Shown: piece by piece, positions 12,465 to 36,706 of the stretch | Position numbering within the stretch: position 1 is the stretch's first letter | Layout of the letters: each line of letters starts with the position of its first letter | NCBI GenBank assembly: GCA_902786815.1 | Contig: CADADV010000005.1 | Location: forward strand, 62,001-126,000 | From: an uncultured Eubacteriales bacterium | GTDB lineage: Bacteria; Bacillota; Clostridia; Peptostreptococcales; Anaerovoracaceae | Reading direction: 5' to 3' | DNA length: 64,000 nt | Program-made: the position numbers and the translations under genes | The notes under the pieces: model-generated | Databases searched by the model: none | What the model saw: only the letters and a program-made list of their open reading frames with translations | Told to the model about the DNA's origin: nothing

Positions 12465-12737
12465 ATGAACAAAACTGAATTAATCGAAGCAGTAGCAAAA
12501 GAAGCTAATCTGTCAAAGAAAGATGCCGGCGCAGCAGTAGCTGCAGTATTCGATGAAATGACAAAGGCTCTGAAGAAGGGCGACAAGGTTCAGATGATCG
12601 GCTTCGGAACATTCGAAGTTAGAAAGAGAGCTGCCAGAAAGGCAAGAAATCCGCAGACTGGCGACGAAATCAAGATCAAGGCCACAAAGGTTCCGGCATT
12701 CAAGGCAGGAAAAGCTCTGAAAGACGCTGTAAAATAA
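12465..12737 (+). CDS. hup: HU-family DNA-binding protein
   Basis: This 90-residue protein has the complete HU fold signature: [11 protein letters not shown] start, the helical body, and the beta-arm motif [23 protein letters not shown] bends and compacts DNA as a dimer. ATG 12465 is chosen because GGAGGG lies at about 12452-12457 and matches all HU starts; the in-frame GTG at 12450 overlaps that ribosome site. A strong promoter lies upstream and a terminator downstream, so it is monocistronic. Confidence 0.97.
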
Positions 12738-33123: not shown

Positions 33124-33337
33124 CTTGTACAGCCGTACAAGATATCATTCACTACCTTGAATCTCTTGTACAAATGGCTTTTGAGACGCAGACGTAAGCC
33201 CCGTTTTGTACAAGAAACAAGCCTTATTTTCGCCAATCTTGTCCTAGCGGCCCTGGATGTACAAGAGATGGAGAAATAACCGTTCTTTCTTGGCTCCACG
33301 TACAAGAGTGAGCCCATAATGAAGAGTCTCTTGTACA
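33124..33337. repeat. Cluster of seven TTGTACAA-like motifs
   Basis: CTTGTAC or GTACAAG occurs at 33124-33130, 33135-33141, 33165-33173, 33206-33214, 33259-33265, 33300-33306 and 33330-33337. Centre-to-centre spacings are about 8, 33, 40, 51, 41 and 33 bp. The core TTGTACAA is itself palindromic. The intervening sequence does not repeat, so this is not a CRISPR array. Confidence 0.7.
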
Positions 33338-33455
33338 GTTCGCTCGGCGTGTCCTCAACTTGGCAAAGCCGCCCCTGGACCCTTACGCTCCCCGTTTTAC
33401 AGAGCCGTCATACCACGCGAAGCAAGATCCAGGACTACGAACCAGCACCCGCCAT

Positions 33456-33469
33456 GCAAATATATTTGC
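33456..33469. promoter_or_regulatory. 14-bp palindrome over the activator gene's -35 element
   Basis: GCAAATATATTTGC is a perfect palindrome, identical to the one at 35008-35021. It overlaps TTGCAC (33466-33471), the best -35 candidate for the following gene. Binding here would block that promoter. Confidence 0.75.
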
Positions 33470-33495
33470 ACACCAGCCCCGCCTGGTGGTATAAT
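33466..33495 (+). promoter_or_regulatory. Promoter of the sigma-54 activator gene
   Basis: TTGCAC (33466-33471) and TATAAT (33490-33495) are separated by 18 nt; GGTGG before TATAAT also gives a near extended -10. AGGAGG at 33514-33519 precedes ATG 33530. Confidence 0.65.
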
Positions 33496-33529
33496 TGCAG
33501 TGCCGGAACCGGCAGGAGGATGAAAAGAA

Positions 33530-35008
33530 ATGAACGCGAAGGAATATCAGGCGATACTCAGGGCTGCTGCGGAGGTCCTGGGCGGAGCGATGCACATCGT
33601 GAACGCAGAGGGCATCACGATTCTTTACAATGAGGAGATGGCCAAGCTGGAGAAGACCAGGATCAGCAATGTCATCGGCAAACCCTTCCGGGAGGTGTTC
33701 TCCAACATTCCCGAGGAGGAGAGTACCCTCATGCAGGCGCTGAAGGAAAAGAAGGCGACGCGGAACCAGCAGCAGACCTATCTGAACGAATACGGCAAGG
33801 AGATCAATACGGTCAATACGACGGTCCCGATCATCGTAGACGGCAAAATCATCGCAGCCATGGAGGTGGCGCGGGACATCACCGATATCAAGAACATGAG
33901 CGATACGATCCTTGATCTGCAGAGCGACCTGACTGCAAGGCGCGCACCGGAAAAGCAGGCTGAAGAGGGTGCGGACGAGACCGGCGCAGGCGGGCAGGAC
34001 GGCGAAAGCCGGAAACGCGAGAAACGCCGCGGCATCCGCAGATACCAGTTCAGCGACATCATCGGCGAGAACCAGAGATTCGAAGAGACCATCGCCCGGG
34101 CGCAGAAGGCGTCACATAACGATACCTCTGTACTCCTCTACGGTGAGACGGGCGTTGGTAAGGAGCTGTTCGCGCAGAGCATCCACTACGACGGGCTCCG
34201 GCAGAAAGGACCGTTCCTGGCCCAGAACTGCGCGGCCATACCGGAGAGCCTTCTCGAAGGAATGCTGTTCGGAACAGCCAAGGGCGGATTCACGGGAGCC
34301 GTTGACAGAGCCGGTCTGTTCGAGCAGGCGAACGGCGGCACGCTGCTGCTTGACGAGGTCAGCGCCATGCCAATCGGCCTGCAGGGCAAGCTGCTGCGAG
34401 TGCTGCAGGAGGAATACATCCGTCGCGTGGGCGGAACCAAAGACATTCCTATCGATGTGCGGATCATCTCGACGATCAATGAGCCTGCAGAGGAACTCAT
34501 TGAGAGGGGTGCTCTTAGGCGCGACCTGTACTACAGACTCGGTACGGTAAGGATCTCGATCCCGCCGCTGCGGGAAAGGAAGGACGACATTCCGATCCTG
34601 AGCAGCGCGTTCCTGAAGAAGTACAACGAACGCTTCGACAAGGAGATCTGGATGCTTTCCGATGGAGCCAAGGCGAAGTTGATGAACTACGATTACCCGG
34701 GCAACGTGAGGGAGCTGGAGAACATCATCATGTCGGCCGTTTCAATGGCCGATGAGGATCACGTCCTCACAGAAACGGACATCGACATCGACAGCGGATA
34801 CAGGGAATCAGCGGATGTATCAGGCGGGCACGCGGCAGAAAGCTTCGTGGAAACCGGCGGATCCCTGTCCGATTATCTGGCAGGAATCGAGGAAACCGTC
34901 ATCCGGCAGTATCTGATCGCAAACGACGGAAACGTGTCCAAAACAGCCAAAGAACTAGGCATGCTGCGGCAAAATCTCCAGCACAAAATCAGGAAATACG
35001 GCATTTAG
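33530..35008 (+). CDS. PAS / AAA+ / Fis sigma-54-dependent transcription activator
   Basis: This 492-residue protein has an N-terminal PAS domain (about residues 15-130), a linker, an AAA+ sigma-54 interaction domain and a C-terminal Fis-type HTH (NVSKTAKELGMLRQNLQHKI). Walker A GETGVGKE (about 205), Walker B GGTLLLDEV and the Arg finger region RRDLYYRLG are intact. The sigma-54 contact loop reads GGFTGA rather than GAFTGA. Located directly upstream of an ornithine-fermentation operon with a -24/-12 promoter, it should activate that operon. The PAS ligand is unknown. A palindrome over its own promoter suggests autorepression. Confidence 0.92.
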   Translation: MNAKEYQAILRAAAEVLGGAMHIVNAEGITILYNEEMAKLEKTRISNVIGKPFREVFSNIPEEESTLMQALKEKKATRNQQQTYLNEYGKEINTVNTTVPIIVDGKIIAAMEVARDITDIKNMSDTILDLQSDLTARRAPEKQAEEGADETGAGGQDGESRKREKRRGIRRYQFSDIIGENQRFEETIARAQKASHNDTSVLLYGETGVGKELFAQSIHYDGLRQKGPFLAQNCAAIPESLLEGMLFGTAKGGFTGAVDRAGLFEQANGGTLLLDEVSAMPIGLQGKLLRVLQEEYIRRVGGTKDIPIDVRIISTINEPAEELIERGALRRDLYYRLGTVRISIPPLRERKDDIPILSSAFLKKYNERFDKEIWMLSDGAKAKLMNYDYPGNVRELENIIMSAVSMADEDHVLTETDIDIDSGYRESADVSGGHAAESFVETGGSLSDYLAGIEETVIRQYLIANDGNVSKTAKELGMLRQNLQHKIRKYGI

Positions 35009-35044
35009 CAAATATATTTGCATATATACCGCAAAAATACTTGC
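35008..35044. promoter_or_regulatory. Pair of palindromic enhancer sites for the ornithine operon
   Basis: GCAAATATATTTGC (35008-35021) and GCAAAAATACTTGC (35031-35044; 12 of 14 match) have centres 23 bp apart, about two helical turns, so both face the same side of DNA. They lie 130-155 bp upstream of the -24 element, a normal distance for a sigma-54 enhancer. Confidence 0.75.
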
Positions 35045-35171
35045 AGAATTGGATGCTTTTGCACCAGGACTGTAGCAGAAGAAAGCGAAAAAGCCCGGAA
35101 GCAGGTGCCGCAAAGCCTTGTGTATCAAGGGTTTCAGACCAAACAAAAAACAAACACATCCCCGGCCGGAG

Positions 35172-35190
35172 TTGGCACGGGGATTGCTTT
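35172..35190 (+). promoter_or_regulatory. Sigma-54 (-24/-12) promoter of the ornithine operon
   Basis: TTGGCACGGGGATTGCTTT matches the RpoN consensus, with GG at 35174-35175 and GC at 35186-35187, ten bases between. The first gene starts at 35254. Confidence 0.92.
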
Positions 35191-35253: not shown

Positions 35254-36312
35254 ATGGAAAACGTAAAAGTAATCATTTGGGGACTCGGCGCTATGGGCGG
35301 CGGCATCGCTGACATGCTGCTTACAAAGGAAGGCGTAGACATCGTTGGTGTTGCTGGAAGAGAACACAAGCAGGGACACTCAATGTATGAGTACATCAAG
35401 ACAGAGAAGGGTGACAGAGAAGACGTCATCATCAAGGCTCCGGAAGAGATCATCAAGCCGGGTGCTGCTGACATCGTAGTACTGTGCACAGACTCCTTCA
35501 CAAAGGATGCATTCCCACGCCTCAAGTTCATCCTGGAGCAGGGACTCAACTGCGTTACTTCAGCCGAGGAAATGGCTTATCCTGCTGCACAGAGCCCAGA
35601 GCTGGCTGCTGAGCTGGACAAGATCGCTAAGGAAAACGGCGTAACAGTACTGGGAACAGGCATCAACCCTGGTCACATCATGGACATGCTCGTACTGGTA
35701 ATGACAGGCTGCATGACCAATGTAGAGCACATCCTCTCCAGAAGAGTTAACTCACTGTCACCGTTCGGACCTGTTGTTATGCATGAGCAGGGCATCGGCG
35801 TTTCCGTTGAAGAGTTCAACGAAAGAAAAGCAAACGGCACAATGTCAGGTCACGTTGGATTCGCAGAATCCGTTGGCATGATGGCAGAAGGTCTTGGCCT
35901 CGAAGTTTCCGAATTCTCACAGGATATGAACCCGATCGTAACTGACGTTGACAGAAAGTCACCGTATGGATTCGCAGCAGCTGGTTCCTGCGCAGGCGTT
36001 GCTATGGAAGCTGATGCTACACTGTCCAACGGCATGAAGGTCAGAATGGAGCACCCGCAGCAGATCGAGCCTGAACAGGTTGGCGTTCAGACTGGCGACT
36101 ATGTAATCCTCGAAGGAACTCCGGCAGTCAACATGGTTAACAGCCCAGAGGTTGAAGGTGGTCTCGGAACAATCGCTATGTGCGCTAACATGATTCCGCA
36201 GGTTATCAACGCTGAGCCTGGCCTGAAGACAATGATCGACCTGCCGATTCCACGCTGCCTGATGGGTGACGTAAGAAAGAGAATCGACCCGGCTAAGAAG
36301 ATCGTTAAATAA
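35254..36312 (+). CDS. ord: 2,4-diaminopentanoate dehydrogenase
   Basis: Ord oxidatively deaminates (2R,4S)-2,4-diaminopentanoate to 2-amino-4-oxopentanoate with NAD(P). The 352-residue protein begins with a Rossmann motif (VIIWGLGAMGGGIADML) and has a DapB-like layout, including GTGINPGHIMDMLVL. ATG 35254 has AAAGGAG 7-8 nt upstream; the in-frame ATG at 35236 precedes that site. Codon choice (many GCT, GTT, CCA, GTA codons) differs from the upstream activator gene and suggests high expression. It is the first gene after the sigma-54 promoter. Confidence 0.92.
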   Translation: MENVKVIIWGLGAMGGGIADMLLTKEGVDIVGVAGREHKQGHSMYEYIKTEKGDREDVIIKAPEEIIKPGAADIVVLCTDSFTKDAFPRLKFILEQGLNCVTSAEEMAYPAAQSPELAAELDKIAKENGVTVLGTGINPGHIMDMLVLVMTGCMTNVEHILSRRVNSLSPFGPVVMHEQGIGVSVEEFNERKANGTMSGHVGFAESVGMMAEGLGLEVSEFSQDMNPIVTDVDRKSPYGFAAAGSCAGVAMEADATLSNGMKVRMEHPQQIEPEQVGVQTGDYVILEGTPAVNMVNSPEVEGGLGTIAMCANMIPQVINAEPGLKTMIDLPIPRCLMGDVRKRIDPAKKIVK

Positions 36313-36374: not shown

Positions 36375-36400
36375 TCATATTCACAATATGGAGGATGAAA

Positions 36401-36706
36401 ATGGCAAAAAAAGGTGATTGGGTCCGCATTCACAGCATCGTCCTGAAGGCAGAAGAAAGAACAGCTAAGCTGCCGGAAGACACAAAGAAATGCGACCTGG
36501 AACAGTGGACAAAGGGCTTCCTGCTTGCAGACGCTGAGATCGGCGACGAAGTAGAAGTTGAAACAGTTGTTGGCAGAATCGAGAAGGGCACTCTGATCGA
36601 TGATTTCCCATACTATGATCACAGCTACGGCAAGTTCGTTCCGGAGCTGATCGAAGTAGACAAGGTTCTCAGAAAAGAGATGGCAGAGATCGGAGGTGTA
36701 AGATAA
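36401..36706 (+). CDS. ortA: 2-amino-4-oxopentanoate thiolase, alpha subunit
   Basis: OrtA with OrtB cleaves 2-amino-4-oxopentanoate with CoA to alanine and acetyl-CoA. The 101-residue protein has the OrtA pattern KGDWVRIHSIVL, ERTAKLPEDTKKCDLEQW and GTLIDDFPYYDHSYG. ATG 36401 is preferred because GGAGG (36390-36394) abuts the alternative ATG at 36395. Its stop overlaps the ortB start (TAATG). Confidence 0.93.
   Translation: MAKKGDWVRIHSIVLKAEERTAKLPEDTKKCDLEQWTKGFLLADAEIGDEVEVETVVGRIEKGTLIDDFPYYDHSYGKFVPELIEVDKVLRKEMAEIGGVR

What the first reader, a model, noticed from the sequence alone, without database searches (positions are those of the whole stretch)
33456..35190. One palindrome links a sigma-54 activator to itself and to the ornithine operon
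GCAAATATATTTGC occurs exactly at 33456-33469, over the activator's -35, and at 35008-35021 with a 12/14 copy at 35031-35044, about 130-155 bp upstream of a perfect -24/-12 promoter. This predicts that the Fis domain of the 33530 protein binds this site, represses its own gene and activates ord-ortA-ortB-oraS-oraE. The motif, the autorepression geometry and the two-turn spacing form a coherent, testable circuit that I do not know to have been described.
Basis: partly seen in the sequence, partly recalled or inferred. Interest (0 to 1): 0.82.

Follow-up and report, generated by a model that had tools for sequence, protein, structure and literature searches.

The report
Ornithine-operon activator that controls itself
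A gut-type anaerobic bacterium appears to switch on its ornithine-eating genes with a protein that also sits on, and probably shuts down, its own gene through the same short DNA word, and in relatives that word has moved from the gene's promoter into the gene itself.

Summary
In detail: GCAAATATATTTGC is exact at 33456-33469 and 35008-35021, 12/14 at 35031-35044, and TTGGCACGGGGATTGCT starts at 35172. The protein is a PAS/AAA+/Fis-HTH sigma-54 activator before ord-ortA-ortB-oraS-oraE. By gene context it is OrdR; OrdR, sigma-54 control of ord and a 'distinct' OrdR motif were reported in 2019 (PMC6615313), so the link to ord is known.

Comparison supports the circuit. Two sites 20-23 bp apart lie between ordR and ord in 42 of 46 loci of the window's family; a pair 19-24 bp apart in 82 of 102 elsewhere. 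Of class-level ord loci, 24 of 24 with OrdR nearby have site and promoter; 5 of 5 without have neither. Upstream of ordR the palindrome's right half is the -35: a -10 lies 19+-1 nt beyond it in 41 of 44 loci. Autorepression is likely, not shown.

New, as far as I could read: in other families the self-site lies inside ordR, with frozen codons (Leu TTG 28 of 30, expected 15%). 69 of 165 OrdR have no self-site.

The parts
33456..33469 (.). Self-operator, core GCAAATATATTTGC of the 16-bp TGCAAANNNNTTTGCA site (33455-33470)
   Evidence: an upstream site in 44 of 50 family OrdR loci of the tree set (43 P + 1 PC)
33466..33471 (+). -35 element TTGCAC of the ordR promoter, formed by the palindrome's right end
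   Evidence: -10 best match 19+-1 nt after the palindrome in 41 of 44 loci
33490..33495 (+). -10 element TATAAT with extended TGG
33530..35008 (+). ordR: PAS + AAA+ sigma-54 activator (GGFTGA loop) + Fis-type HTH
   Evidence: Pfam PF08448, PF00158, PF25601, PF02954; alignment A1
35008..35021 (.). Upstream activating site 1, exact palindrome
35031..35044 (.). Upstream activating site 2, GCAAAAATACTTGC, 23 bp from site 1
   Evidence: two exact-core sites 20-23 bp apart in 42 of 46 family loci
35172..35189 (+). -24/-12 sigma-54 promoter of the ord operon
   Evidence: a motif of this kind in 46 of 46 family loci with ordR then ord
35254..36312 (+). ord, 2,4-diaminopentanoate dehydrogenase
   Evidence: NF040740, 494 bits, cut-off 400
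36398..36706 (+). ortA
   Evidence: NF040739 and PF22010
36706..38115 (+). ortB
   Evidence: NF040741
38160..38537 (+). oraS
   Evidence: PF16552
38550..40790 (+). oraE
   Evidence: NF040743
40850..42634 (+). GlmL-related ornithine degradation protein, probable last gene of the operon
   Evidence: NF040744

Best explanation
The 33530 gene is ordR. OrdR dimers recognise TGCAAANNNNTTTGCA through the Fis-type HTH. A pair of sites about two turns apart upstream of ord nucleates an OrdR oligomer that contacts sigma-54 RNA polymerase at the -24/-12 promoter and drives ord-ortAB-oraSE when the PAS domain senses ornithine or a related metabolite. A single site covering the -35 of ordR's own sigma-A promoter lets OrdR exclude RNA polymerase and hold its own level down. 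In many other Clostridia the same self-site lies inside ordR, just after the start codon, where it could act as an elongation roadblock. Shown: sequences, conservation, co-occurrence, -35 overlap, codon freezing. Inferred: binding by OrdR, sigma-54 activation, repression, the signal, the roadblock.
For: Tandem pattern in 58 of 197 family genomes, backward control 0 in all; 55 of those 58 have an OrdR-like hit, two more an ordR fragment cut by a contig end, one (G101) shows neither gene. Two exact-core sites 20-23 bp apart in 42 of 46 family loci, and no pair at any other spacing there; in other families a pair 19-24 bp apart in 82 of 102, and 72 of 94 exact-core pair spacings fall in 19-24 with no limit set. 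Class-level ord loci: 24 of 24 with OrdR nearby have site and -24/-12; 5 of 5 without OrdR within about 5 kb have neither; 3 have too little sequence. -10 at 19+-1 nt after the self-site in 41 of 44. Codon freezing at the intragenic site. A second target with a tandem and TTGGCATAAAAGTTGC, an amino-acid permease (PF13520) in L092. In C. difficile, deleting oraSE raises orr, ord and ortB (PMC8803604, passages), which fits ornithine as inducer.
Against: No binding or expression data for this protein. In C. difficile ord was 'NR' (not SigL-regulated) by qRT-PCR in the conditions tested (PMC7438776, passages). 69 of 165 OrdR have no self-site. 21 of 76 OrdR-like family genomes lack the strict tandem pattern, the window's included because its second copy is off-pattern. 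L033 and L034 have no self-site; L025 and L035 have no exact-core site before ord. The recognition helix is weak evidence: OrdR mostly reads RQ[TN]LQHK or RQNLQYK, but paralogues read IPRQTLQYK, only slightly different. GabR, a similar PAS activator, does not bind its own promoter (PMC4279683). Related genomes are not independent, so p-values are nominal.
Confidence: 0.8

Rival explanations
1. The site at 33456 is mainly a distal enhancer for ord, about 1.7 kb from its promoter; overlap with the ordR -35 is incidental.
For: Sigma-54 enhancers can work from a distance (recalled). Some loci have further sites before ord (10 of 102 non-family loci have 3 or more exact-core sites).
Against: The -10 lies 19+-1 nt from the palindrome in 41 of 44 loci; a distal enhancer needs no such register. 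69 of 165 OrdR have no self-site, although 95 of 102 non-family loci keep at least one site before ord.
Confidence: 0.1
2. A different transcription factor binds the palindrome at both genes.
For: No tested binding; palindromes of this size suit many factors.
Against: Sites go with OrdR: 55 of 58 tandem-bearing family genomes have an OrdR-like hit, and 5 of 5 ord loci without OrdR nearby lack the site and the -24/-12 motif. Position and spacing suit a sigma-54 activator.
Confidence: 0.06
3. OrdR bound over the -35 activates rather than represses its own gene, or has no effect.
For: The direction of the effect is not measured.
Against: The palindrome's right end is itself the -35 hexamer, so a bound dimer should block sigma-A; an intragenic site elsewhere also suggests repression.
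Confidence: 0.12
4. The intragenic word in other families reflects protein constraint (LQ[NK]IL) or an RNA hairpin, not an operator.
For: It codes for an LQ[NK]ILQ/H-like stretch in one frame in 51 of 52; a perfect palindrome can also pair as RNA.
Against: Synonymous freezing in 30 genes taken whether or not they have the site: Leu TTG 28 of 30, expected 0.15; Ile ATT 27 of 30, expected 0.41; ranks 1 and 2 of 258 columns. The same word serves upstream of ord. 0 of 30 paralogous activators have a core match near the start. The residue in the middle varies (AAT, AAA, ATA, ATG, ATC, AGA, AGT, loci picked by the core pattern).
Confidence: 0.15

Closest known systems
OrdR regulon, Nie et al. 2019, BMC Genomics 20:565 (PMC6615313; outline, passages, sections 6 and 7 seen)
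   Same: Sigma-54 activator of ord-ortBA-oraSEF-orr-nhaC, named OrdR, with a 'distinct' UAS motif; predicted in five species including C. difficile. Most UAS of all groups lie 100-250 bp upstream of the promoter.
   Different: Motif letters are in a figure and supplement I could not read. Table 1 lists only the ord operon as OrdR's target, while it lists dioR and mopR as targets of their own products. The -35 self-site and the intragenic self-site are not in the text seen.
C. difficile CD0441/OrdR and mapped -24/-12 promoter of ord, Front Microbiol 2020 (PMC7438776; passages seen)
   Same: TSS-mapped sigma-54-type ord promoter beside OrdR. Its GGCACGATTTATGC string occurs in L310 and L311; the table prints the same string for hadA.
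   Different: No SigL effect by qRT-PCR in the conditions tested; L310 and L311 have no self-site by my pattern.
GabR of Bacillus thuringiensis (PMC4279683; passages seen, abstract in part)
   Same: PAS/AAA+/HTH sigma-54 activator of an amino-acid pathway, with a 21-bp repeat in its binding region.
   Different: Reported not to bind its own promoter.
C.Kpn2I controller protein (PMC6237814; abstract and outline seen)
   Same: A regulator whose binding site lies within its own coding region and stalls elongating RNA polymerase.
   Different: Restriction-modification controller, not a sigma-54 activator.
PspF, NtrC and XylR autorepression (recalled, not looked up)
   Same: Sigma-54 activators that limit their own sigma-70 promoters.
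   Different: Other signals and sites; no site relocation known to me.

Membership tests
sigma-54 bacterial enhancer-binding proteins | AAA+ sigma-54 interaction domain with Walker motifs and GAFTGA-type loop | tested here: met
   PF00158 200.6 bits; GETGVGKE and LLLDE; the loop is GGFTGA, invariant in the 15 sequences of A1
sigma-54 bacterial enhancer-binding proteins | Fis-type HTH DNA-binding domain | tested here: met
   PF02954 at 452-490
sigma-54 bacterial enhancer-binding proteins | Activates a -24/-12 promoter from a remote UAS | not testable with these tools
   Motifs present and conserved; no expression data
OrdR group | Encoded next to the ord-ort-ora genes | tested here: met
OrdR group | Shares the UAS motif published for OrdR | not testable with these tools
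   Logo and Table S3 not readable; loci bearing the C. difficile ord promoter string (L310, L311) have one such palindrome before ord
PrdR (NF041552) | Score above the curated cut-off | tested here: not met
   343 bits against 795
negatively autoregulated activators | Operator overlapping the gene's own core promoter | tested here: met
   Promoter-like elements by sequence only
negatively autoregulated activators | Expression rises when the regulator is removed | not testable with these tools
   Needs a mutant

The most novel reading that the evidence does not exclude
OrdR's self-operator is a movable element: the same 16-bp word is either the -35 of ordR or a codon-frozen intragenic operator (roadblock), usually at codons 10-16. 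Intragenic sites go with a same-strand gene upstream (45 of 48, against 20 of 44 for the promoter type; but also 57 of 69 with no site). Negative feedback on this activator is thus kept or re-gained across Clostridia while its mechanism shifts between blocking initiation and blocking elongation, and a DNA operator dictates part of the regulator's own amino-acid sequence.
Probability: 0.6. Interest if true: 0.72.

Novelty: new variant of a known kind. Interest (0 to 1): 0.58.

Why it matters
Oxidative ornithine degradation supports non-inflammatory gut colonisation by C. difficile (PMC8803604, abstract and passages in part). A letter-level operator makes its regulator findable in uncultured genomes. 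The relocation of a self-operator between promoter and coding sequence, with synonymous codons frozen by a DNA site, gives a natural series for asking how feedback loops are conserved while their parts move.

Tried and rejected
Input-domain swap: in G007 (L165) ord follows a histidine-kinase-like gene and a REC-type activator with the tandem site, but that protein's recognition helix is ARKNLYRK, not RQTLQHK, and a PAS-type OrdR with an upstream site lies on another contig (L102). I dropped the idea.

Wider regulon in the window's genome: of the 9 places with up to 2 mismatches, the six outside the locus show no -24/-12-like motif in their stretches. The looser single-site pattern gave 15 against 8 for its backward control, so it is not informative. 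In the family, tandem places at G175:C2 and G086:C51 have neither ordR nor ord in the stretch fetched and look like chance; G101:C38 runs into a contig end and is unresolved.

Limits and dropped rows. Two near-identical upstream pairs were removed before the -10 count. Of 177 OrdR rows, 12 were set aside by hand before the tree (eight repeats of a genome or near-copies: L044, L059, L139, L142, L144, L159, L212, L242; also L271, a repeat of L216; partial L054; REC-type L165; and L030, which has an upstream site but no ord next to it), leaving 165. L150's upstream match was not counted as P by hand. Loci without ord downstream were left out of the architecture counts, leaving 148. Of 36 ord hits over the cut-off, 32 were examined; left out were the window, G083, G072 and G302's second copy. 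In L138 the site before ord lies inside the 3' end of ordR. P and C labels were given by the core pattern, so their low mismatch counts are partly by construction; the N group is near letter-shuffled DNA but with a small excess (4 of 69 with 2 or fewer mismatches against 1.0; L255 and L307 may be decayed intragenic sites). Start codons were chosen by script and may be off by a few codons. The tree is FastTree with long branches flagged; 14 label changes is a minimum and does not separate gain from loss. Structure prediction was not run.

Full report
Check of the observation. The exact 14-bp palindrome is at 33456-33469 and 35008-35021 and a 12/14 copy at 35031-35044; four matches with up to two mismatches occur in 64 kb against 0.17 expected. 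The two exact copies are the only ones in the held 2.2-Mb assembly. The first forms the -35 (TTGCAC, 18-nt spacer, extended -10 TGGTATAAT) of the gene at 33530; the other two end 150 and 127 nt before TTGGCACGGGGATTGCTT at 35172.

What the genes are. The 33530 protein has a PAS fold, a sigma-54 interaction AAA+ domain and a Fis-type HTH. It is not PrdR by the curated cut-off. The genes after it are ord, ortA, ortB, oraS, oraE and the GlmL-related ornithine gene.

What was known. Nie et al. 2019 (PMC6615313; outline, passages, sections 6 and 7) name OrdR, assign it the ord operon under sigma-54, and say OrdR has a distinct UAS motif; the letters are in a figure and supplement that I could not see. 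Table 1 there lists only the ord operon as OrdR's target. A -24/-12 promoter was mapped before ord in C. difficile, although qRT-PCR showed no SigL effect in the conditions tested (PMC7438776, passages). Seven searches of the open-access library showed in their listings no report of an ordR self-operator; subscription papers are not covered.

Conservation at ord. In the window's family (the tool's f1), 58 of 197 genomes carry the tandem pattern and none carries its backward control. Of the 58, 55 have an OrdR-like hit (E up to 1.5e-107), two more an ordR fragment cut by a contig end, and one shows neither gene; 21 of 76 OrdR-like genomes lack the strict pattern, the window's among them. Of 46 family loci with ordR then ord, 42 have two exact-core sites, all 20-23 bp apart with no limit set on spacing (23 bp in 28), and 46 have a -24/-12-like motif. 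Of 102 loci in other families, 82 have a pair 19-24 bp apart (the range searched; second copy allowed one core mismatch), 95 have at least one exact-core site and 95 have the motif; with no limit, 72 of 94 exact-core pair spacings lie in 19-24 and 22 outside. Among 32 class-level ord loci, 24 have OrdR nearby and all 24 have site and promoter; five have about 5 kb upstream without OrdR and none has either; three have too little upstream sequence. These sets overlap in part.

The self-site over the -35. In 44 of 50 distinct family loci an upstream site was found, and the best match to TGNTATAAT puts its hexamer 18-20 nt after the palindrome in 41 of those 44, that is 17+-1 nt from TTGCA[CT]. 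The exceptions are L025, L036 and L038. One locus of another family, L305, has the same geometry. This is the evidence for autorepression: the right half of the operator is the -35 itself.

The self-site inside the gene. In four family loci without the upstream site (L026, L027, L058, L060) and widely in other families, the word lies inside ordR, usually 29 or 32 nt after the start; L029 has both, its inner one in another frame. In two families taken without regard to the site it is present in 17 of 18 and 11 of 12 OrdR. Over 165 OrdR: 44 promoter type, 51 intragenic, 1 both, 69 neither, with at least 14 changes on the tree. In the 30 OrdR of those two families, the operator's Leu codon is TTG in 28 (expected 0.15) and its Ile codon ATT in 27 (expected 0.41), the first and second most frozen of 258 columns, and the Gln codon is fifth. 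The p-values are nominal because the genes are related. None of 30 paralogous activators has a core match near its start. The window's own first codons carry no such word.

Mechanism. OrdR probably binds pairs before ord to activate sigma-54 polymerase and a single site at its own gene to limit itself, by occluding initiation in the window's family and by occlusion or roadblock elsewhere; C.Kpn2I is a studied case of an intragenic roadblock (PMC6237814, abstract). Intragenic sites go with a same-strand gene upstream (45 of 48, against 20 of 44 for the promoter type), as expected if read-through must be limited; but loci with no self-site also have one in 57 of 69 (mechanical reading frames of 100 aa or more), so this is suggestive only. 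The signal is inferred: in C. difficile, loss of oraSE raises orr, ord and ortB, and dietary ornithine affects the locus (PMC8803604, passages).

Reach. One family genome (G164, L092) has a second tandem with a third site and a -24/-12 motif before an amino-acid permease (PF13520), so the regulon can extend to transport.

Verdict.

Noticed in passing
L092:11017-12453 (-), sites at 12644-12679 and 12842: An amino-acid permease (PF13520) about 8.4 kb from ordR in G164 has a tandem OrdR-type pair, a third single site and TTGGCATAAAAGTTGC before its start: a probable second OrdR target.
   Followed up: partly
33126-33337: Five of the window's 18 TGTACA words lie within 212 bp upstream of ordR (CTTGTACA-type repeats); 11 of 12 relatives checked have none within 600 nt.
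   Followed up: partly
L165:6261-7544: In G007 the ord operon follows a histidine-kinase-like gene and a REC-type sigma-54 activator with a different recognition helix, although the tandem palindrome pair is present.
   Followed up: partly
L158, L160, L161, L163, L164: Five ord loci lack OrdR, palindromes and a -24/-12 motif; in L163 the gene before ord has an alanine-racemase fold (PF01168), and L164 looks the same by eye, so their regulation must differ.
   Followed up: partly
L101:3731-5119 and L095: In G059 an OrdR-like gene without any site lies beside a PF01168 racemase-like gene and away from ord, while the ord operon on another contig keeps its tandem pair.
   Followed up: partly
L125: G302 carries two ord copies in tandem.
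   Followed up: no
L245-L252, L257, L266: Ten close OrdR relatives of one family (f6) show no ord and no site within the roughly 1.5 kb held on each side; some may have other targets.
   Followed up: no
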